IMG/VR virus record: IMGVR_UViG_3300035698_022667 | Coordinates: 1-51,014 of that record | Strand: one strand, 5' to 3' | Source of the DNA: a virus | DNA: 51,014 bases | Part shown: piece by piece, positions 10,342-45,342 of the stretch | Position numbering within the stretch: position 1 is the stretch's first letter | Layout: every line of letters begins with the position of its first letter | Position numbers and translations under genes: made by a program | The notes under the pieces: generated by a model | Databases searched by the model: none | Seen by the model: only the letters and a program-made list of their open reading frames with translations | What the model was told of the DNA's origin: nothing

Positions 10342-12186
10342 ATGACAAAAGAAGAATTTATCGCATATATTTCAAAGGATAATCCAGGGTTTTATAAAAC
10401 AAGAAAATCTCATATTAACAAAATTTCCCCTAATATTTTAATAGAAATAAATAATTTTATTAATAATAATAAACTAGTAATTATCAATTTTAGTGATTCT
10501 TTAAATTATTTTTTAAATGACTTAACAAGACAGGTTAGATGTTTGAATTGCGGAAAACCTATTCATTCGAAATCTCTATATTGTTCAGTTAATTGTAAAA
10601 ATCACGACATAAAAACCATCATATCAAAAACTCAGCAAACTTTATTAGCTAAAAATGGGTCAACATCTCCTCTTGGATCTAAAGAAGCAAAAGAAAAAAG
10701 AAAAGAAACGTGTATTAAAAGATTTAATGCTGAACATCCATCTATGAATGATGATATTAAATCTAAGATACAAAAATCAAACAAAAAAACATACGAAGAT
10801 AAGAATTTACGAAAGAATATATCTCAAAAAATAAAACAAGCGTATAGTACTGATGGCGAAAATATAATAAAGAAAAGAAAACAAGCAAACTATAAATCTA
10901 CAGGTGAATATAAAACGTTAACCTCTAAAGCTATATTAAAGGCTAAAAATACCCTTAAAGAAAGATATAATGAGAAAAATCCGTTTAAAATTCATCCCGA
11001 TACATATGAGAGAGCAAAATTAGGATCTATAAAATTTTTTAATAATAATAACAATAAAGAAAAAGCTTTAGTACAGCGCAGCAATACAATTATTTCTAAA
11101 TATGGGTCATTAGAAAAAATGAATGAAATTATTTTTTCAAGAAAAAAAGAAAAAATACTACAATCTATACTTGATTTAGGGTTTAAAGACGAAATTGTAA
11201 ATTATAATTATGATCATATCGGAAAAGTAACATGCAAGTGTGAAAAGGGACATAATTATGAAATATCATTTAGACTTTTAAGAGAAAGATTAAAAAGAAA
11301 TGACATGTGTTGTACAATATGTTCGCCCCCTTTAACTAAATGGACATCAAATGGCCAAATAGAAATGTTTAATTGGTTATCAGAACATGTATCATGCAGA
11401 CAAAATAATAGATCATTGTTAAACGGGCAAGAAGTTGATATATTTGTACCTAGTCATAATTTTGCTATAGAATTTAACGGAGTTTATTGGCACTCTGATT
11501 TATTTAAAGATAAAAATTATCATCTCAACAAAACACTAATTTTGAAAAATAAAAATATTAAGTTAATTCATGTATGGGAAGATTTATGGGAAAGTAAAAA
11601 GGAAATAGTAAAAGCTAGAATTCTTTCGAATTTACATTTAGATTCAATAAAAATTGGTGCAAGAAATTGTAGTTTGAAAGAAATTTCTAGTTCAGAAATC
11701 AATGCATTTTATGAAAAAAATCATTTGCAAGGAAAAACAAAAGGAATGTTGCACGTCGCGTTATTTTCTAATAACAAAATCGTATCAGCTATTAGTGTTG
11801 GAAAGAGAAAATTAGGAAAAAATAAAGGCAATAATTTTGAAATTCTTAGATTTTGTAATAAATTAAATATAAATTGTATAGGTTCTTTTAGCAAACTTTT
11901 TAAATATGTTAAAAATATGAACGACGGAAAATATATTTCATATGCAGATATGTCGTGGGGGGAGGGAAATGTTTATAGTCATGCTGGATTTGTTCTAAGG
12001 GAATATTCTAAACCAAATTATTGGTATTTTATCGAAAACCAAAGATTTCATAGGTATACTTATAGAAAAAGTGAATTAATAAGAAAAGGATATGATAAAG
12101 AAAAAACAGAATTTCAAATAATGAATGATGATGTTAAAGCACTTCGCATATATGATTGCGGAAATGCAGTATGGGAAACTTTGTAA
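10342..12186 (+). CDS. Homing endonuclease, Vsr/EDxHD-like
   Basis: The 614-residue free-standing endonuclease has an N-terminal zinc-finger-like CLNCGKPIHSKSLYCSVNC (about residues 73-91). A long basic Lys/Asn-rich DNA-binding region with repeated helices follows. A second Cys cluster appears at about residues 299-330 (CKCEKGH, CCTICSPP). The nuclease core is GQEVDIFVPSHNFAIEFNGVYWHSD and, about 35 residues on, LIHVWEDLWESK, matching Vsr-like homing nucleases. The C-terminal 150 residues (NHLQGKTKGMLHVALFSNNK to the end) are also present, truncated, at 34415-34927. It inserts directly after the late sigma gene and is bordered by a duplicated 3' end of that gene. Confidence 0.8.
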   Translation: MTKEEFIAYISKDNPGFYKTRKSHINKISPNILIEINNFINNNKLVIINFSDSLNYFLNDLTRQVRCLNCGKPIHSKSLYCSVNCKNHDIKTIISKTQQTLLAKNGSTSPLGSKEAKEKRKETCIKRFNAEHPSMNDDIKSKIQKSNKKTYEDKNLRKNISQKIKQAYSTDGENIIKKRKQANYKSTGEYKTLTSKAILKAKNTLKERYNEKNPFKIHPDTYERAKLGSIKFFNNNNNKEKALVQRSNTIISKYGSLEKMNEIIFSRKKEKILQSILDLGFKDEIVNYNYDHIGKVTCKCEKGHNYEISFRLLRERLKRNDMCCTICSPPLTKWTSNGQIEMFNWLSEHVSCRQNNRSLLNGQEVDIFVPSHNFAIEFNGVYWHSDLFKDKNYHLNKTLILKNKNIKLIHVWEDLWESKKEIVKARILSNLHLDSIKIGARNCSLKEISSSEINAFYEKNHLQGKTKGMLHVALFSNNKIVSAISVGKRKLGKNKGNNFEILRFCNKLNINCIGSFSKLFKYVKNMNDGKYISYADMSWGEGNVYSHAGFVLREYSKPNYWYFIENQRFHRYTYRKSELIRKGYDKEKTEFQIMNDDVKALRIYDCGNAVWETL

Positions 12187-13622: not shown

Positions 13623-15407
13623 ATGGCAGGCTTCAATTTGAGAAATCTTGATAAAGGCTCAAGATCCTTTTTAAATAATTTACAACGCAATATTCGTTAT
13701 CTTTCGGTTTGGGGTATGAAATGGGATGATAAAATCATTAAACAATCGAAAGCAATTGGTATTACTGAACTTCAAGAAGATTCGATGTATAGTCTTTATG
13801 GACAACATCAAATGGCTTCTGGAATGGACATCAATCAAAAAGAATTTATTGCGTTCTTTGATAAAGAATATCCAACAAGACGTGATTTTCTTCGTAGATT
13901 TGCAATGAATGGAGAAATTGAACATGTTATTGAGATTATTGCAGATGAAACGATTATACAAGATGATAGAAATTTCTTTGCATATCCAAATACAAGAAAT
14001 TTGAAAGCAGTTCTTAAAGCTGAAAAATCAAAAGAAATTGTAGATGATCTTAATGAAGCATTCAGAAAAGTATACTATGCATTTGGATTTAATTCTGGGC
14101 ACGATGGCTGGCATTATGCTAAAAAATTCTTAATTGATGGGTTTCTTGCATTTGAAATAATATATGATGGAGAAGAAGAAGATGATGCTAAGAATATCTT
14201 AGGATTTAAAGAACTTGATCCTGTAACTCTTGAACCAGAAATTCGTAAAGATGAACAAGGAAATGAATTCAGAGTATGGATTCAGTTTAGAGGAGATTCA
14301 GAAAAACAAAGAGAATTAGTTGACGGAAACTTAATTTATATTTCATGGGCTAGAGGAAATTTCATTTCAAGATTATCATACGTTGAAAGACTTGTTCGTT
14401 CATTTAATATGTTACGTACAATGGAAAATTCACGTATTATCTGGAATGTTATCAATTCGCAATTTAGAATGAAAATTCTAGTGCCGATAGGAACTCAATC
14501 AGAAGTAAAAGCAAGAACTCGTTTATCAGAACTTCGAGGTATGTATAAAGAAGATGTTGCAATTGATTATCAAAGTGGTGAAGTAACAATTAATGGCACG
14601 CCAAATTTTTCATTCGCAAAAACGTATGTTATTCCAACAAAAGATGGTGGTGGGCAAACAGAAATAGATGCATTTGCTCCACAAGGTTATGACCTTAGTG
14701 GCACAATGGCTCTAGATTACTTCTGGAAGAGGTTTATCATCGAGACAAAGGTACCTAATAACAGATTTTCAAGTGGAGAAGAAGGTGGAGGAGATTCAAA
14801 TTGGTCATCAGGCGGTGATAGTATTGCAAGAGAAGAAATAAGATTTAATTATTTCATTAATCGTATTCGTTCTATACTTCAAGAAATTTTGATGAAACCA
14901 ACATGGACTCAATTTTGTTTGAAACATCCAGAATTTGCAAAAGATAAAGCTCTTAAAGGAGCAATTGGACTTGAATTTGTCGAAGAAAATTTATTTACTT
15001 CAGCTAAGAAAAGAGAATTAGCAGGTAAGGGAGCAGAAACTGTAAATAATCTTATGGGTGTTAAACAACCAGCTATAGGAGCAGAAGGAGACATATCTGA
15101 AGAATTTTATTTTGACCCTAAATTCCTTGTTGAAAAATATATGGACTTTACTGATGAAGATCTAAAACTTAATGAAAAATATAAGAAAGAAAGAAGAGAA
15201 CAACTTACAAGAGTTGGAAATGCAATGAAACGTATCAGTGGAGCTGAAAATGAAGGCACCGGAGGTGGAGATATGGATGGAATGGATTTAGGTGGAGGTA
15301 GCAATATGGGGGCTCCACCTGATATGGGTGGAGGTGGCCCTGAAGAAGGCGACGGAGAAGACCTTGGTGGAACAGAATTAGGATTATATAAACTTAAAAT
15401 AAACTGA
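13623..15407 (+). CDS. 20: Portal vertex protein, gp20-like
   Basis: The 594-residue protein forms the dodecameric portal through which DNA enters the head. T4 gp20-type features in order: a helical N-terminal region; the DFLRRFAMNGEIEHVIEIIADETI segment near residues 86-110; DPVTLEPEIRKDEQGNEF in the wing; the clip/stem region with SYVERLVRSFNMLRTMENSRI; the tunnel-loop region TEIDAFAPQGYDLSG; and VPNNRFSSGEE, matching the conserved VPxSR motif. The REEIRFNYFINRIRSILQEI helix follows. The C-terminus has a Gly/Met/Asp-rich low-complexity extension (about residues 545-585). Length exceeds T4 gp20 (524) mainly because of this tail. It has its own late-promoter-like motif. Confidence 0.93.
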   Translation: MAGFNLRNLDKGSRSFLNNLQRNIRYLSVWGMKWDDKIIKQSKAIGITELQEDSMYSLYGQHQMASGMDINQKEFIAFFDKEYPTRRDFLRRFAMNGEIEHVIEIIADETIIQDDRNFFAYPNTRNLKAVLKAEKSKEIVDDLNEAFRKVYYAFGFNSGHDGWHYAKKFLIDGFLAFEIIYDGEEEDDAKNILGFKELDPVTLEPEIRKDEQGNEFRVWIQFRGDSEKQRELVDGNLIYISWARGNFISRLSYVERLVRSFNMLRTMENSRIIWNVINSQFRMKILVPIGTQSEVKARTRLSELRGMYKEDVAIDYQSGEVTINGTPNFSFAKTYVIPTKDGGGQTEIDAFAPQGYDLSGTMALDYFWKRFIIETKVPNNRFSSGEEGGGDSNWSSGGDSIAREEIRFNYFINRIRSILQEILMKPTWTQFCLKHPEFAKDKALKGAIGLEFVEENLFTSAKKRELAGKGAETVNNLMGVKQPAIGAEGDISEEFYFDPKFLVEKYMDFTDEDLKLNEKYKKERREQLTRVGNAMKRISGAENEGTGGGDMDGMDLGGGSNMGAPPDMGGGGPEEGDGEDLGGTELGLYKLKIN

Positions 15408-16317: not shown

Positions 16318-16576
16318 GAGTTCTCGAAAGAGATAGTTATAAGGTAGGTATGGAACACCCGGTTTCGACACCGGCATCTCCACGATATCATCCAATAGTG
16401 CCCCGTTATGGCCAAGGATAATAACGTGACTGTAGGGAATAGATCTACTCAAGGGGATGAATGGATTTGACTTTATACTTAGAATAATAGTGATTATCTT
16501 AATAAACGCAATAAACGGCGAAACAGTTTATGAAATGGCTATGGCTGCGTAACACGCACTCATTTTCAGGAAACTT
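16318..16576 (+). ncRNA. ssrA: Circularly permuted (two-piece) tmRNA
   Basis: The 3' tRNA-like part precedes the 5' part. Acceptor piece: helix-2 strand TAGGTATG (16345-16352), T-arm CCGGT-TTCGAC-ACCGG (16359-16374), acceptor strand CATCTCC (16375-16381), discriminator A. After a spacer (about 16383-16452) comes the coding piece: GGGGATG (16453-16459), the conserved-type AATGGATTTGAC, and TATACTTA (16474-16481), which pairs with the first helix-2 strand. The acceptor stem GGGGATG/CATCTCC has a G3-U70 wobble, the alanyl-tRNA synthetase identity element. The tag frame at 16508-16552 reads AINGETVYEMAMAA then TAA, with a hairpin TGCG/CGCA around the stop. No T-arm or acceptor follows the tag, so the order is permuted, as in alphaproteobacterial tmRNA. 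The T-loop seems to have one extra T. It would rescue stalled ribosomes and tag nascent proteins. Confidence 0.87.
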
Positions 16577-16604
16577 GCCCCCTGCCAAACTGGGGGCTTT
16601 TTTA
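16577..16604 (+). terminator. Rho-independent terminator of the tmRNA
   Basis: GCCCCC / GGGGGC stem (16577-16582 with 16592-16597), 9-base loop, T-run to 16604. It directly follows the coding piece of the tmRNA, which fixes the 3' end of the precursor. Confidence 0.85.
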
Positions 16605-19953: not shown

Positions 19954-20580
19954 ATGAGTAAAAAAAATCCAAGTATACAAACAATAGCATTAAATTTTAT
20001 AGAAAAAAAAGATAACGAAATATTTACAATTTTAATTAATAGATTAAAACCTGGCCTTTTAGCATTTGTGTATAAATATGTTAAAGACAGAGATTTAAGT
20101 AATGAAATAGTTTCGCAGACTTTTATTGTAATTTGGGAAAAAATACATCAATATAAACCTGAATTCAACTTTTCAACATGGGCGTATGCCATCGCAAAAA
20201 ATGAAGCATTAGGAGTAATAAGAGCAAATCGTCGTACTTTATCACATGACAAATTGACTGAAAATCATTCTAAATTACTTCAATTGTATAATCCTGTTTT
20301 TAATATGAATACAGAATGTGTGGGTCCAAGTGGCGAAGAATTAGTTCAAAGATTATATGATGCAAGTATTGCAGCAATTAATCAACTTAACGAACCTTAT
20401 AAAACTGTAATGATTGAAAGAGAAGTACATCAAAAACAATTGCATAACATTGCCGAAGATTTAAGCTGGAATTTATCAACAGTCAAAACACGTTTGCGAA
20501 AAGCAAGAAAAGATGTAGCAAGTACTTTGATTAAAACACATCCAGAATTAGTAGAATCATATATTGAAAATGATGATTAA
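19954..20580 (+). CDS. ECF-type sigma-70 family factor
   Basis: The 208-residue protein shows region 2 at about residues 30-95: VYKYVKDRDLSNEIVSQTFI, then VIWEKIHQY, FSTWAYAIAKNEALGVIRANRR. The last is the core-binding and -10 recognition helix typical of RpoE-like factors. Region 4 is at about residues 145-195: LNEPYKTVMIEREVHQKQLH, NIAEDLSWNLSTVKTRLRKARK, a classic helix-turn-helix. A phage-encoded ECF sigma would redirect host polymerase, perhaps to middle genes, alongside the gp55-like factor. A gene for a membrane-anchored protein starts 4 bases after its stop. Confidence 0.88.
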   Translation: MSKKNPSIQTIALNFIEKKDNEIFTILINRLKPGLLAFVYKYVKDRDLSNEIVSQTFIVIWEKIHQYKPEFNFSTWAYAIAKNEALGVIRANRRTLSHDKLTENHSKLLQLYNPVFNMNTECVGPSGEELVQRLYDASIAAINQLNEPYKTVMIEREVHQKQLHNIAEDLSWNLSTVKTRLRKARKDVASTLIKTHPELVESYIENDD

Positions 20581-39636: not shown

Positions 39637-41664
39637 TTAACCTTTTCTCCATGGCAAACTATGATTACTCCTTTCAAAAGAATAGCTGGGTATATATCTT
39701 TTGTTCTCAAGTTCATTATTCATAGCTTTTGTCATAGCTGATTCAGTAGATTCAGATTCTTCATACATTAATTTAAACGTGTCATCATCAGTATCACCAT
39801 TCTCAGTATGTTCTTCAATCAATTCTCCGATTAATCTTTTCTGTGGACTATCTTCAAACCCATCAAACAAATCATAAAGCCATTCTTCATATTCCGTTTC
39901 TTCGTAAAAACGACTAACATTTAATGCACTCATTACGATATCATCATGAGCTCCAACTCCTCTGTATCTTCCTCTTTTATCTTTTCCAAATGCTCTAAAT
40001 TCTTTTGCTGTTTCAACTTCATTAAGAATTAAATTTCTTTTTGAGACCATTTTCTTCCCAAGTTTACAGAAAAAATCTTTATCTGCTCCAACTTTGAATC
40101 CTGCTTTTCTTCTTGGTGGTTTTTCTCCAACAATAGGTTTTGTATGATATGTATGTAAAACACAAGCATCTTCATAATCATCATGTTGTGAAAATTTATC
40201 TAAAAAATGTTTCCCATTAAAATTCATTTCAATTAAAACTTTACAAACTTCAAGATTAAATTGGTCGAATACAATGGATCGTGTGACCTTAGCGCAATTT
40301 TCTTCATCTTTTATATTATCCCTATATAAACCTACTTGAGTTAATCTAAACATATTCTTGATGTTCGTTTCATCATTTCTAAGTCTTTTTAATTGTGAAA
40401 GACTTTTCATTTCAACTTTAAAAATTATGCATACATTATAATCGTTATCCTTTATTTCGTCTTCATCTTTTCCCTCTCCTGTATCGATAGATAACACAAA
40501 CCTATCATTAGTTTTATCAATATCTTTATTAGGATCAAATTTTGGATGCCATTTTAAATTGCGATATAAACTTTCATCTAAATCAGTTTTAGCCAATTCT
40601 TCCCAGTTATATTCGCATTGAAGTTTACTAATTAACTCTAAATCTTTCATTCCTAATAAAAGACTGTCACCTCTATTAAATAATAATTTAAATTCTTGTG
40701 CAAATCGCTCTTCTCCAAAGTCAGCAATCATTTTTTCTGCCCATGCTTCATCATGTTCAGGAACTTCATTATAATCAACTCGAATAGGTATAAATGAGTT
40801 AATCCCTTTAATAGCTTTATCCCAAATTTCAAAGAATAGATCGTATTCACTTGCAGGTGTAGATGTAATTATGCATTGTGATATTTCTGATGAAGCTAAT
40901 GTAGGATAAACTGATCTCCAGAATTCTGTTACGATATTTGCTTGAATATGAGCAAACTCATCAGCATATAGTACATGAATCGTAAAACCAATTTGCGCTG
41001 TTTTAGTAGTTGCTTGTGATAATAACTTACAGCCATTATCTAAAACCATTCCTCCTGCGCCAGCATTAAATATTCCTGGTTTTAAAAAGAACGGTAGTCC
41101 TTTAAATACATCAGTTACTTTTGATACAATTTCGAACGCTGTTGCTTGTTTATTAGCAAGAATCGCTAAGTTTCTATCATTATGAAAACACATATACCAT
41201 GCAAAAAATGCTGAAATTGTTGTGGTATTATGAGAAATTATATCATTACTATAAAATGTATGTTCTTTGCTATCAACTGTAACATCATACATACTAACTT
41301 TAAATGGTAATTTTTTAATTTTCACTATTCTATCTAATCCATAACGTGTCTGTATATAATCATTTATGCATAAATCTTTAATAAAAATTTCTTCATTTAT
41401 CGAATTGAATATTACATGATTATCAGCGCATTCTAATTCTAAACCCTTTTCTGTTTTTAAAGCCCATATACAATATGGCTGTGTTTTGTGTATTTGAGTT
41501 AGTTTTTCAAATCCTGAAGGCGTATCAATTTCAATATCATTCAATTTAATAGTATCTAATATTTTTTTAGATATATCATTTTGATCTAAATGTAAGTTTC
41601 TGTATTCAATTTTTTCTATTAATTGAATTAAAAATAAAATAATATATTTAAGCAGCGTTTTCAT
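39637..41664 (-). CDS. 17: Terminase large subunit, C-terminal part with C-intein
   Basis: The first 146 residues of this 675-residue protein are intein: IEIDTPSGFEKLTQIHK, then GLELECADNHVIF (block B with His), KVSMYDVTVDSKEHTFYSND (block F) and IISHN (block G, terminal His-Asn). Residue 147 begins the extein, TTTISAFFAWYMCFHNDRNL, which completes the Walker A motif ASRQTGK-TTT begun at 42650-43180. Walker B is HVLYADEFAHI, motif III is CIITSTPASEY, and the nuclease domain includes FVLSIDTGEGKDEDEI and ARGVGAHDDIVMSALNVSRF-like sequence. After splicing the motor would have about 652 residues, close to T4 gp17 (610). Its start overlaps the endonuclease gene by 17 bases. Confidence 0.9.
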   Translation of the reverse strand: MKTLLKYIILFLIQLIEKIEYRNLHLDQNDISKKILDTIKLNDIEIDTPSGFEKLTQIHKTQPYCIWALKTEKGLELECADNHVIFNSINEEIFIKDLCINDYIQTRYGLDRIVKIKKLPFKVSMYDVTVDSKEHTFYSNDIISHNTTTISAFFAWYMCFHNDRNLAILANKQATAFEIVSKVTDVFKGLPFFLKPGIFNAGAGGMVLDNGCKLLSQATTKTAQIGFTIHVLYADEFAHIQANIVTEFWRSVYPTLASSEISQCIITSTPASEYDLFFEIWDKAIKGINSFIPIRVDYNEVPEHDEAWAEKMIADFGEERFAQEFKLLFNRGDSLLLGMKDLELISKLQCEYNWEELAKTDLDESLYRNLKWHPKFDPNKDIDKTNDRFVLSIDTGEGKDEDEIKDNDYNVCIIFKVEMKSLSQLKRLRNDETNIKNMFRLTQVGLYRDNIKDEENCAKVTRSIVFDQFNLEVCKVLIEMNFNGKHFLDKFSQHDDYEDACVLHTYHTKPIVGEKPPRRKAGFKVGADKDFFCKLGKKMVSKRNLILNEVETAKEFRAFGKDKRGRYRGVGAHDDIVMSALNVSRFYEETEYEEWLYDLFDGFEDSPQKRLIGELIEEHTENGDTDDDTFKLMYEESESTESAMTKAMNNELENKRYIPSYSFERSNHSLPWRKG
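41227..41664 (-). other. C-terminal fragment of a split intein (146 residues)
   Basis: This is the intein part of the downstream terminase polypeptide. Blocks B, F and G are present and it ends in His-Asn before Thr+1. Residues 1-40 (MKTLLKYIILFLIQLIEKIE and on) form a hydrophobic/charged helical lead that may dock to the N-intein. Block B lies in this fragment, so the break is upstream of the usual split site. Confidence 0.85.
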
Positions 41665-42616
41665 ATAAAAAATTTATGCATTTTTTTATTGTTTCTTCTT
41701 GATTAGACCAGTATTCATCTTCCCATATTACTAAAATATCATAATTATGTGCTTTAGCAATGTCACATTTTCTTTTATCAAATTCCCTGATTTCTTTTGC
41801 AGTTTTATGACTTATTTTATGAATATAATCATCTGCATATAAGCTTTCTTTTGCATGCCAAAATACCCCATTAATTTCAATGATTTTTTTTGTATTCATA
41901 TTTGTTAAATCATATTTATATGCTCTTTTGTTTTCCTTATCGTATATAAATTTTTCTGATTTATCATAAAGTAATTTATCATTATTAATATTATGAATTT
42001 TTATTTCATTTATAATTTTCTCTGATAATTTTGAAATCCCCTTTCCTATGTATGTATCTTTATTAAATACTTTTGCTTTCCATTTTCTTTGTCTTTCTTT
42101 CCATACTTTTGTTCCCTCTTTTTCACCATATTTTATAATACATTTTTTTAAAGAAAATGTAGTTTGCCTATTTTTTAATTCAGCTTCAGCTTCTTTTTGT
42201 TTATATCCCCGCTTTAGATAATAATCTATAGTTGTTGTAAATTCTCTATTTTTTAATGCTTCTTCAATAAAAAGCGTGCGATCCTTATCTGTTAAACCTC
42301 TTTTTATATAAAACTCTTTTGAAAACGGTGAGCGGCCTTTTCGAGTTTTTTCATCAGTTTTATTTTTTGAATTAACATTTTTATCTCCTTTCCAATTATC
42401 TGATGCTTGCTTTCTATATTTTTTTTGAGACATATGTTTTCCGCTATTTTTAGAAATGTTAATTTTATCAGATACACACATTAGAGGTTCTCCTGGAAAT
42501 TCTTTTTTATAATCATTTGAAGTTTTTCCTGGATGCGAAAATTTTATATGCTTTCCGTATATTCTTTTAACTGGTTTATTGCACCATTTGCAAATAATAT
42601 AATCATCCATAGTCAT
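41648..42616 (-). CDS. Homing endonuclease gene between intein halves (Vsr-like)
   Basis: This 322-residue protein starts with a Cys2-His2-like finger (YIICKWCNKPVKRIYGKHIK, then FSHPG). Basic helical repeats follow (KEFYIKRGLTDKDRTLFIEE, REFTTTIDYYLKRGYKQKEA). The C-terminal nuclease core is TKKIIEINGVFWHAKESLYA and YDILVIWEDEYWS. It shares the E-x-NGV-x-WH and WED-x-W features with the endonuclease at 10342. A separate endonuclease gene lying between split-intein halves matches the 'fractured gene' arrangement described for phage-like environmental sequences. It presumably drives homing of the whole cassette into intein-free terminase genes. Confidence 0.85.
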   Translation of the reverse strand: MTMDDYIICKWCNKPVKRIYGKHIKFSHPGKTSNDYKKEFPGEPLMCVSDKINISKNSGKHMSQKKYRKQASDNWKGDKNVNSKNKTDEKTRKGRSPFSKEFYIKRGLTDKDRTLFIEEALKNREFTTTIDYYLKRGYKQKEAEAELKNRQTTFSLKKCIIKYGEKEGTKVWKERQRKWKAKVFNKDTYIGKGISKLSEKIINEIKIHNINNDKLLYDKSEKFIYDKENKRAYKYDLTNMNTKKIIEINGVFWHAKESLYADDYIHKISHKTAKEIREFDKRKCDIAKAHNYDILVIWEDEYWSNQEETIKKCINFLYENAA

Positions 42617-42649
42617 TTTATTCTATATATTTGGCATCTAGACAAATAA

Positions 42650-43180
42650 TTACAAATTATCTATTTTATAATAAGCAATCATTAGATTAACTTTAATTTT
42701 TTCTAAAATTGTGAGTTTTTCTTTTCTGAAATAATATAACAAATTTACAGGAAGTTTTAATTGTGCATGAGTAACTTCATCTCTTAAAATTATTTCACTT
42801 CCAAAAAGACATTTGCCAGTTTGACGACTAGCCATAATAATTAAGTTCCTATTCTCCGGGCCAAGTTCTTCTAATATGTCGATATATTTTTCTGCTGCTA
42901 ATAATCGAAGAATTGTTTTTTGTTTTTCACGTAAATTAACAATTGTACGACCTTTATCAGTCATGAATCGACAATATTTTTCTACGAAATAAACAATATC
43001 TTCAGAACACTTATGAAATTCATCTATTTCATCAGGCGTTAATTGATAAAGAATATTTCCTGCCTTTAATTCAATGTCTTGTTGATAGAAACATCCTAAA
43101 TCAGTAGGTATGCCCATTCGGAGTTTTTCTAAAGATTGTTGGACAATGACACTATTCCATATCGATACAGTATTTTGCAT
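42650..43180 (-). CDS. 17: Terminase large subunit, N-terminal part with N-intein
   Basis: Of 176 residues, 1-123 are the N-extein: ILYQLTPDEIDEFHKCSEDI, VYFVEKYCRFMTDKGRTIVN, LREKQKTILRLL, and NLIIMASRQTGK, the first half of the ATPase Walker A loop. Residue 124 is Cys1 of the intein: CLFGSEIILRDEVTHAQLKL, then a hydrophobic/charged helix to the stop. Without splicing the P-loop would lack its Thr residues and the motor could not work. It lies 3 bases downstream of the small terminase gene. Confidence 0.9.
   Translation of the reverse strand: MQNTVSIWNSVIVQQSLEKLRMGIPTDLGCFYQQDIELKAGNILYQLTPDEIDEFHKCSEDIVYFVEKYCRFMTDKGRTIVNLREKQKTILRLLAAEKYIDILEELGPENRNLIIMASRQTGKCLFGSEIILRDEVTHAQLKLPVNLLYYFRKEKLTILEKIKVNLMIAYYKIDNL
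42653..42811 (-). other. N-terminal fragment of a split intein (53 residues)
   Basis: It starts with the nucleophile Cys1 and block A-like CLFGSEIILRDEV, and ends before any block B (no TxxH). It is much shorter than the 90-100 residues of canonical N-inteins, so this is an atypical split. It resembles in kind the short N-intein reported for the AceL TerL intein. Confidence 0.82.
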
Positions 43181-44313: not shown

Positions 44314-45342
44314 TTAAATTATCCAGTCATTTTCTAAATAACTCCATAATTGATCTATATCTACAAATTTCTTTTGTTCGTTTTTATAAACTGCTTTTCT
44401 TCCTTTAATTGCTGCTGGTTTTCCTTTTTTTGCTTCACTTTGTTTTTTTCTAGTTTCTGAAGAAATGCCAATTTTGCCTTTATTCCAAGCTTTTTGCCCT
44501 TTATGAGAATCACTTTGTTTTCTTCTTGTTTCTATAGATGCTTTTGTTCCTAATTGCCTTTCGCTTTGTTTTTTATTTTGTTCTGGAGTTCGTTTCTTTC
44601 CTTTTAATTTTTCTCTACGCTTCTCGATAGTCTTTTGAGATTGTTTTCTTCCTTTCCCTGCTTCACTTATTTTTCTTCTTGTTTCCTCAGAAAGATGCTT
44701 TCCCTTATTCCACGGAATTTTTCCAAACATTGGATTTTTTTCTCCTAAATTAGCTTCTCTTTGTTTTTGCAATGTTTCTGAAGATCTTTTTATACCTCTT
44801 ATTTTATCTGCTCTTTTTTTCTTTGTTTCTTCAGACTGGATTGTGCCTTTTTTAGCATCACCTATTTTTTTACAATGTTCTGGAGATTTACATTTTCCTT
44901 TGTGCAATTTTCTTAATTTTTCTTTTGTTATTTGTGCTTTTTCTTTTCCAATGATTTCTTCTAATGTTTTTCCAAATCTAAATAATTTTAGCTTTTCACG
45001 TGTTTCTTTTGTAATAGATGTTAATTTTAACACTTCTTTAGCATACGCGTAATCTCTTGAAGAAACGTATTTATTATATTTTTTGTTATACGACATATAA
45101 TGAAATGCCTCGCATATTTTTCTATTTTTCGAATAAATATATGTTAACAATTTATGACAAACAAAATGTTCTCGCGCAGTTAATAAAACTAAATTTTCTT
45201 CATCATCGTTTCCATTCATACACCTTGGAATGATATGATGTTTTTCAAAGTAAATATAGTCATCTTCATTTTTACTTAATTTAATTCTATTTTTAAATTT
45301 TGCTTTATGAATTATAGTTTCATAAATTTTTTGATGATTCAT
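44314..45342 (-). CDS. HNH homing endonuclease with NUMOD3 repeats
   Basis: In this 342-residue protein the HNH core is near the N-terminus: FEKHHIIPRCMNGNDDEENL followed by VLLTAREHFVCHKLL (His-His, Asn, His). The C-terminal 200 residues are repeated NUMOD3-type DNA-binding motifs (SEETKKKRADKIRG, NPMFGKIPWNKGKHLSEETR, SQKTIEKRREKLKG, KAWNKGKIGISSETRKKQSE). It ends in a short VDIDQLWSYLENDW segment. It has inserted between the neck-protein gene and two tag genes. An exact copy of the 14-mer directly abuts its ATG. Confidence 0.9.
   Translation of the reverse strand: MNHQKIYETIIHKAKFKNRIKLSKNEDDYIYFEKHHIIPRCMNGNDDEENLVLLTAREHFVCHKLLTYIYSKNRKICEAFHYMSYNKKYNKYVSSRDYAYAKEVLKLTSITKETREKLKLFRFGKTLEEIIGKEKAQITKEKLRKLHKGKCKSPEHCKKIGDAKKGTIQSEETKKKRADKIRGIKRSSETLQKQREANLGEKNPMFGKIPWNKGKHLSEETRRKISEAGKGRKQSQKTIEKRREKLKGKKRTPEQNKKQSERQLGTKASIETRRKQSDSHKGQKAWNKGKIGISSETRKKQSEAKKGKPAAIKGRKAVYKNEQKKFVDIDQLWSYLENDWII

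What the first reader, a model, noticed from the sequence alone, without database searches (positions are those of the whole stretch)
16318..16604. Phage-encoded circularly permuted tmRNA with its own degradation tag
The tRNA-like 3' half (T-arm, CATCTCC, discriminator A at 16382) lies before the 5' half (GGGGATG at 16453, TGGATTTGAC). The two form a 7-bp acceptor stem with the G3-U70 alanine identity pair. The helix-2 strands TAGGTATG and TATACTTA also pair across the spacer. The tag reads AINGETVYEMAMAA-stop and a terminator follows immediately. Permuted tmRNAs are established in alpha- and betaproteobacteria and cyanobacteria; I do not know of one in a T4-like phage. The tag ends MAMAA rather than the common LAA, so tagged proteins may be degraded differently. 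It could help the phage recycle ribosomes after host mRNA breakdown, or mark host proteins.
Basis: partly seen in the sequence, partly recalled or inferred. Interest (0 to 1): 0.93.

Follow-up and report, generated by a model that had tools for sequence, protein, structure and literature searches.

The report
Two-piece tmRNA in Lak-like megaphages
A giant phage related to the Lak megaphages of Bacteroidota carries its own ribosome-rescue RNA (tmRNA) with the gene's two halves in swapped order; such swapped genes are already known in other phages, but this one looks like a separate, Bacteroidota-type lineage that may have arisen inside the phages.

Summary
The RNA is real. Rfam tmRNA_permuted matches 16332-16552 at 42.9 bits (E about 6e-9 in the record; cut-off 47). 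ARAGORN misses it, probably because the T-loop has only six bases. Eleven relatives in IMG/VR carry the same gene, nearly all about 1 kb after the portal gene. Their acceptor, T, helix-2 and stop-codon hairpins co-vary strongly (15 of 30 pairs change on both sides; 0 of 500 shuffles as good).

Two parts of the reading need correction. The tag is GETVYEMAMAA (11 aa, resume codon GGC), not AINGETVYEMAMAA: the upstream GCA is out of frame or absent in seven of ten sequences. And permuted tmRNAs in phages, T4-like ones included, are published (Melnitz, 2022).

What is unusual is the clade. By portal phylogeny the phage is sister to Lak megaphages, whose tmRNA is standard-order, and Bacteroidota hosts have one-piece tmRNA. 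Resume region, missing encoded CCA and leader resemble Bacteroidota and mahaphage genes, not the alpha or beta permuted lineages. A fourth, phage-born permutation is the best guess, but a tree of the 81 usable columns does not reject shared ancestry with known permuted forms.

Verdict: a functional two-piece tmRNA is very likely; a new variant of a known kind.

The parts
16322..16333 (+). small hairpin (CTC-GAAA-GAG type) at the 5' side of the acceptor piece; length and exact 5' end of the mature RNA unknown
   Evidence: sequence; the hairpin is kept with changed bases in relatives (GCTC/GAGC, GCCA/TGGC, GCTT/AAGC)
16345..16354 (+). helix 2, 3'-domain strand (UAGGUAUGGA)
   Evidence: pairs with 16472-16481; 5 of the 8 counted pairs change on both sides among relatives
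16359..16374 (+). T-arm CCGGU-UUCGAC-ACCGG, six-base loop closed by U-A (normal loop is 7)
   Evidence: sequence; T-stem pairs all co-vary; six-base loops also in L002 and L021
16375..16382 (+). acceptor stem 3' strand CAUCUCC plus discriminator A; CCA not encoded
   Evidence: co-varies with 16453-16459 (CATCTCC/GGGGATG, CACCTCC/GGGGGTG, CAGGTCC/GGGCTTG); G3-U70 in 10 of 10
16383..16452 (+). spacer expected to be removed from the precursor
   Evidence: variable in sequence and length (16-100 nt) among relatives; removal is inferred
16453..16459 (+). acceptor stem 5' strand GGGGAUG, start of the coding piece
   Evidence: as above
16460..16471 (+). D-like region ending UUUGAC
   Evidence: T at the UUYGAC position in 9 of 10 members, C in almost all alpha, beta and cyano permuted genes
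16472..16481 (+). helix 2, 5'-domain strand (UUUAUACUUA)
16510..16516 (+). resume-codon upstream element AAUAAAC
   Evidence: near-invariant among relatives and Bacteroidota standard tmRNAs
16517..16552 (+). tag reading frame GGC..TAA, peptide GETVYEMAMAA
   Evidence: the only tag frame open in all relatives; relatives' tags called by ARAGORN
16540..16564 (+). helix 5 hairpin around the stop codon
   Evidence: 92% of cells paired; GCAU/AUGC, GCUU/AAGC, GCGU/ACGC alternate
16577..16603 (+). intrinsic terminator, probable 3' end of the coding piece

Best explanation
This is a functional two-piece tmRNA gene of a huge myophage that is sister to the Lak megaphages and probably infects Bacteroidota. 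One precursor is transcribed and ends at the terminator. Host tRNA-processing enzymes cut out the 70-nt spacer, giving an acceptor RNA and a coding RNA held together by the acceptor stem and helix 2. Host nucleotidyltransferase adds CCA, host AlaRS charges it (G3-U70), and host SmpB carries it to stalled ribosomes, which resume at GGC and add GETVYEMAMAA for host proteases. In infection it would keep phage translation running while mRNAs are being broken down. Shown here: conserved order, co-varying helices, conserved tag frame, synteny. Inferred: expression, processing, charging, use of host SmpB. Best guess on origin: the gene arose by a circular permutation inside this phage lineage, from a Bacteroidota-type standard tmRNA such as the mahaphages still carry (about 60%). 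The confidence given is for the functional two-piece tmRNA, not for the origin.
For: Rfam RF04321: window 42.9 bits, E 6.3e-9; seven of the nine relatives scanned together are above cut-off. ARAGORN independently calls permuted tmRNA in eight of the 16 portal-linked loci and in L387. Pair counts: 92.3% of cells paired, 15/30 pairs with double changes, 0/500 shuffles, sharply lost on sliding. The tag frame is kept in 10/10 sequences. Origin: the portal tree puts the permuted clade (100/99) next to Lak (100/100), with standard-order tmRNA in Lak-A2 and LR756500 (ARAGORN and Rfam) and in Lak-B5, Lak-C1 and LR756504 (Rfam only); Lak-A2's gene lies 234 nt before the matched start of its portal. Resume region TAAACGGCGAAA matches Bacteroidia. 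CCA is not encoded in the six tested members, against 54 of 55 alpha and 55 of 58 beta genes. Leader GTTCTTTRAAATA precedes 6/6 tested clade genes and LR756500's standard gene, but none of the 158 alpha, beta, cyano and gamma genes. 60 of 61 Bacteroidota genomes have a one-piece tmRNA above cut-off. No Shine-Dalgarno excess (7 against 6.5 shuffled in 220 ORFs), as expected for Bacteroidota hosts.
Against: No expression data. The window copy is below Rfam's cut-off, has a six-base T-loop and a helix 2 with several G-U pairs, so this particular copy could be weak. No SmpB in the phage contigs, so it must depend on the host. On origin, the tree of the tRNA-like and resume segments (81 columns) cannot decide: an AU test does not reject one clade of all permuted genes (p 0.66). 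L002's 5' end is closer to beta than to Bacteroidota genes, and two relatives reach 46-50 bits with the alpha model. The UUUGAC character is also seen in pelagiphage HTVC008M.
Confidence: 0.85

Rival explanations
1. Same two-piece tmRNA, but acquired: the phage lineage replaced its standard tmRNA with an alpha- or beta-type permuted gene by horizontal transfer, and the resume region and tag later adapted to Bacteroidota hosts. (A rival on origin only; it is compatible with the functional explanation.)
For: Permuted genes of those types are common in viruses; the AU test does not reject a single permuted clade (p 0.66); some relatives score 36-50 bits with the alpha or beta models.
Against: No encoded CCA, UUUGAC instead of UUCGAC, a Bacteroidia-type resume region, and a leader shared with the standard gene of LR756500. 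L011, the first branch of the clade, has its closest 5' end in LR756500's standard gene (18 of 20 identical).
Confidence: 0.35
2. An inhibitor or decoy of host trans-translation, like the tRNA-like-domain-only RNA of mycobacteriophage DS6A, which may titrate SmpB.
For: Phage interest in blocking ribosome rescue is conceivable; a tRNA-like-domain-only molecule inhibits tmRNA (PMC4131195).
Against: A conserved tag frame, resume element and stop-codon helix would not be kept in a decoy.
Confidence: 0.06
3. The window copy is a decaying copy of a functional family.
For: Below Rfam cut-off, ARAGORN-negative, six-base T-loop, several G-U pairs in helix 2, no boxA-like leader.
Against: All acceptor pairs, G3-U70, tag frame, helix 5 and terminator are intact. 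Six-base T-loops with a U-A closing pair recur in L002 and L021, and other members also have unusual T-loops.
Confidence: 0.08
4. Chance resemblance, no RNA gene.
For: The single-sequence fold is not unusual (z -1.1).
Against: E 6.3e-9 and strong covariation across ten sequences at one locus.
Confidence: 0.005

Closest known systems
Two-piece tmRNA of OM43 phage Melnitz and pelagiphage HTVC008M (alpha-type, T4-like myophages; PMC9004378)
   Same: Phage-borne permuted tmRNA in a T4-like myophage, acceptor piece before coding piece, own tag
   Different: Alpha-type resume region (GCAAAC), tag ANFNEYALAA in HTVC008M, encoded CCA; alpha or OM43 hosts; Melnitz carries a glutamine riboswitch at ssrA
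Alpha-, beta- and cyanobacterial permuted tmRNAs (Rfam RF01849, RF01850, RF01851; merged RF04321)
   Same: Gene order, 7-bp acceptor with G3-U70, helix 2, tag in the downstream piece
   Different: Window matches none of the three lineage models usefully (alpha 8.3 bits); no encoded CCA (unlike alpha and beta), Gly or Asp resume codon in 9 of 10 members
Standard tmRNA of mahaphages (Lak-A2, Lak-B5, Lak-C1, LR756500, LR756504)
   Same: Nearest phages by portal; tags ending in MAA (DDEIDFRMAA, GNNAEMRMAA); next to the portal gene in Lak; leader TGTTCTTTGAAAATA in LR756500
   Different: Standard order, about 360-410 nt, with the middle domain kept
Standard tmRNA of Bacteroidota (GENNYALAA, GETNYALAA tags)
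   Same: Resume region TAAACGGCGAAA, Gly-Glu start of tag, CCA mostly not encoded
   Different: One-piece gene with the full middle domain
Permuted tmRNA in a prophage of Bacteroidota genome G248 (found here)
   Same: Permuted, Bacteroidota-like acceptor side, host keeps its own standard tmRNA
   Different: Another phage (rIIA, rIIB, family A polymerase, integrase nearby); tag called GKVIQMNNAPVRLAA; may be an independent case

Membership tests
permuted (two-piece) tmRNA, Rfam RF04321 | acceptor/T-arm piece encoded upstream of the 5' (coding) piece | tested here: met
   ARAGORN 'permuted' in relatives
permuted (two-piece) tmRNA, Rfam RF04321 | alanine-type acceptor stem with G3-U70 and discriminator A | tested here: met
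   10 of 10 sequences
permuted (two-piece) tmRNA, Rfam RF04321 | helix 2 joining the two pieces | tested here: met
   co-varying helix, 85% of cells paired
permuted (two-piece) tmRNA, Rfam RF04321 | tag reading frame with conserved resume element, ending in Ala-Ala-stop | tested here: met
permuted (two-piece) tmRNA, Rfam RF04321 | score at or above the curated cut-off of 47 bits (a curation threshold, not a biological trait) | tested here: not met
   window 42.9; seven of the nine relatives scanned together reach 52-65
permuted (two-piece) tmRNA, Rfam RF04321 | precursor cleaved into two RNAs, charged with alanine, acts with SmpB | not testable with these tools
   needs RNA from infected cells
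alphaproteobacterial permuted tmRNA, RF01849 | score at cut-off of 50 and the lineage's own structure | tested here: not met
   window 8.3 bits; best relative 49.8
betaproteobacterial permuted tmRNA, RF01850 | score at cut-off of 84 | tested here: not met
   best relative 44.1, window not listed
cyanobacterial permuted tmRNA, RF01851 | match to the lineage model | tested here: not met
   no match listed up to E 10 in the window or relatives (a lower-scoring overlap could be hidden by the clan rule)
standard one-piece tmRNA, RF00023 | 5' end first, 3' end last in one gene | tested here: not met
   no match in the record
a lineage separate from the alpha, beta and cyano permuted genes | tree excluding the three known permuted lineages | tested here: inconclusive
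   separate in one tree, but with beta added the AU test is not significant (p 0.66)

The most novel reading that the evidence does not exclude
A fourth, independent circular permutation of tmRNA that happened inside a virus lineage: Lak-sister megaphages of Bacteroidota changed their own standard-order tmRNA into a compact two-piece form, without the usual middle domain, while their hosts kept the one-piece RNA. Two-piece tmRNA would then be a trait that phages can invent, and phages could be a source of the permuted genes seen in bacteria.
Probability: 0.55. Interest if true: 0.75.

Novelty: new variant of a known kind. Interest (0 to 1): 0.6.

Why it matters
Permuted tmRNA is described as a trait of three bacterial clades (PMC11915505, PMC9004378). 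A Bacteroidota-type permuted tmRNA, in phages whose nearest relatives carry the standard gene, gives related viruses on either side of the permutation, so how a two-piece RNA arises becomes testable. It also shows a very small tmRNA (about 215 nt in its two pieces) working without the usual pseudoknot domain, if it is functional, and it gives annotators a class that ARAGORN and the Rfam cut-off partly miss.

Tried and rejected
Single-sequence folding was uninformative. An exact T-arm/acceptor pattern found nothing in viral contigs, and blastn of the gene found nothing in GenBank phages. Rfam lineage models do not settle the origin. The tree with only alpha and cyano permuted genes separated the window clade, but adding beta genes and running an AU test removed the significance, so I do not claim the origin as shown. 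UUUGAC as a Bacteroidota marker was weakened by its presence in HTVC008M. 'Tag -MAMAA is special' was rejected: Bacteroidota and mahaphage tags share the ending. A search of phage contigs for SmpB was negative. The supplementary tables of the tmRNA database paper could not be read, so I cannot exclude that its 79 phage sequences include a member.

Full report
What was checked. Rfam at its curated cut-offs and ARAGORN report nothing. With an E-value threshold, RF04321 (tmRNA_permuted) matches 16332-16552 over its full length at 42.9 bits against a cut-off of 47, E 4.2e-7 against all families in 801 nt and 6.3e-9 in the record. No standard-order tmRNA is present. ARAGORN probably misses the gene because the T-loop has six bases (CCGGU-UUCGAC-ACCGG); I did not test this.

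Relatives. The portal protein (13623-15407; PHROG 213) has 16 related loci in IMG/VR, on contigs of up to 405 kb. ARAGORN calls permuted tmRNA in eight of them, counting near-duplicates, and Rfam reaches its cut-off in seven of the nine scanned together. Further members were found by pattern: L021, L387 and L390. With the window this makes 12 distinct genes, nearly all shortly downstream of the portal gene. One portal relative (L009) has no tmRNA match on its 42-kb contig.

Structure. On a 10-sequence alignment with the spacer removed, the acceptor stem, T-stem, helix 2 and the hairpin around the stop codon (helix 5) pair in 92.3% of cells. Fifteen of 30 pairs change on both sides, and the covariation score is 0.427 against 0.151 in shuffles (0/500), falling to 0.06-0.16 when strands are slid. 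G3-U70 is present in all ten, while the acceptor stem varies through compensated changes (CATCTCC/GGGGATG, CACCTCC/GGGGGTG, CAGGTCC/GGGCTTG). The shuffle control does not remove relatedness; the slide control keeps it, and it agrees.

The tag. ARAGORN starts the relatives' tags at GGC or GAC (once GCA). In the window that codon is 16517-16519, giving GETVYEMAMAA. Relatives' tags are GENVYNEYRIAA, GENVYDYQMAA, GENSYALQMAA, DNTVYEMKMAA, DANIYEMQMAA, GENSYEYRMAA, GEKVTELAMAA, GEKRYMYQMAA and ANTFMNTEMMMAA.

Whose phage. The portal's closest GenBank relatives are LR756500 (462 kb), the Lak megaphages of Prevotella, and the 634-735 kb uncultured phages. Al-Shayeb et al. place the phages over 634 kb in the Mahaphage clade with predicted Bacteroidetes hosts, as for Lak (PMC7162821). 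In the portal tree the window clade is one group (100/99) and sister to Lak (100/100), although several long branches are involved. The related 405-kb contig encodes about 39 tRNAs. It has no Shine-Dalgarno excess (7 of 220 ORFs against 6.5 shuffled), as expected of Bacteroidota genes from general knowledge. Host assignment remains an inference. 'T4-like' is fair for the terminase, portal and sheath but the better label is Lak-sister megaphage.

Gene order in the neighbours. LR756500 (95.5 bits, tag GNNAEMRMAA), Lak-A2 (58.2 bits, tag DDEIDFRMAA) and LR756504 (65.2 bits) carry standard-order tmRNA, as do Lak-B5 and Lak-C1 by Rfam. In Lak-A2 the gene ends 234 nt before the matched start of the portal. 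Of 61 Bacteroidota genomes, 60 have a standard tmRNA above cut-off, with tags such as GENNYALAA, GETNYALAA and GETNYAMAA. In 296 Bacteroidota genomes a permuted gene above cut-off was found once, in G248. It lies among rIIA, rIIB, primase, DnaB helicase, family A polymerase and, further on, an integrase, so it is very probably a prophage, and that genome also has its own standard tmRNA.

Origin. Characters pointing to Bacteroidota or mahaphage ancestry: the resume region (TAAACGGCGAAA); no encoded CCA in the six tested members, against 54 of 55 alpha and 55 of 58 beta genes; UUUGAC in 9 of 10; and a leader GTTCTTTRAAATA before all six ARAGORN-called genes tested and before LR756500's standard gene, in 1 of 35 Bacteroidota genes and in none of 158 alpha, beta, cyano and gamma genes (the window, L006 and L008 lack it). 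The most basal permuted member, L011, has its best 5'-end match in LR756500. Against: the sequence tree has 81 columns, and an AU test does not reject one clade of all permuted genes (p 0.66). I therefore put in-lineage permutation at about 0.6 and acquisition with later adaptation at about 0.35.

Function. The most likely mechanism is trans-translation by a two-piece tmRNA that uses host processing enzymes, nucleotidyltransferase (CCA is not encoded), AlaRS, SmpB and proteases; no SmpB gene was found in eight phage records. A decoy role is unlikely because the tag frame and helix 5 are conserved. The likely benefit, keeping the hijacked translation machinery running, is one already suggested for phage tmRNAs (PMC9004378) and is not tested here.

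Novelty. Phage permuted tmRNAs are known (PMC9004378: 53 two-piece genes among 18,146 phage genomes) and common: capped scans here returned about 54 alpha-type, 58 beta-type and 5 cyano-type permuted genes in viral contigs. Papers found describe three bacterial clades with permuted genes (PMC11915505, PMC9004378). I found no report of a Bacteroidota-type permuted tmRNA or of permuted tmRNA in Lak-like phages, but only open-licence papers were searched and the database supplements could not be read.

Noticed in passing
window 39637-43180 (-): The terminase large subunit looks split: 42650-43180 matches PHROG 5989 positions 93-170 and 39637-41664 matches 169-336, with a 322-aa ORF (41648-42616, PHROG 22677) between. 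Intron or intein candidate.
   Followed up: no
window 10342-12186 (+) and 44314-45342 (-): Two homing-endonuclease-type genes (PHROG 3339/559; HNH with NUMOD3), the first one shortly before the portal.
   Followed up: no
L002, L003, L005, L007, L011, L016 upstream of the tmRNA; LR756500 just before its tmRNA: A boxA-like leader, GTTCTTTRAAATA, shared by permuted and one standard mahaphage tmRNA; absent from 158 alpha, beta, cyano and gamma genes. Could be an antitermination signal.
   Followed up: partly
window 16391-16419; L003 spacer: The spacer of the window and of L003 shares a hairpin-like block (TCCAATAGTGCCC...GGCCAWGGA) not seen in the other relatives.
   Followed up: no
L121/L122 (Bacteroidota genome G248, contig 1, about 966-1006 kb): A large prophage-like region with rIIA, rIIB, DNA polymerase, tRNA-Met, tRNA-Ile and a permuted tmRNA, in a genome that also has a standard tmRNA.
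   Followed up: partly
L002, L006, L008, L021, L390 and the window: T-loops of this clade are unusually free: six bases with U-A closing, or GGCGGAA, CTCGCC, AGGCATA instead of TTCGANN.
   Followed up: partly
   Followed up: partly
window 19954-20580 (+): A phage RNA polymerase sigma factor-like gene (PHROG 1740, E 5.5e-17).
   Followed up: no
MK250024 (Lak-B5) 409798-410207 and MK250029 (Lak-C1) 182229-182625: Standard tmRNAs of Lak phages that Rfam finds just above cut-off and ARAGORN misses.
   Followed up: no
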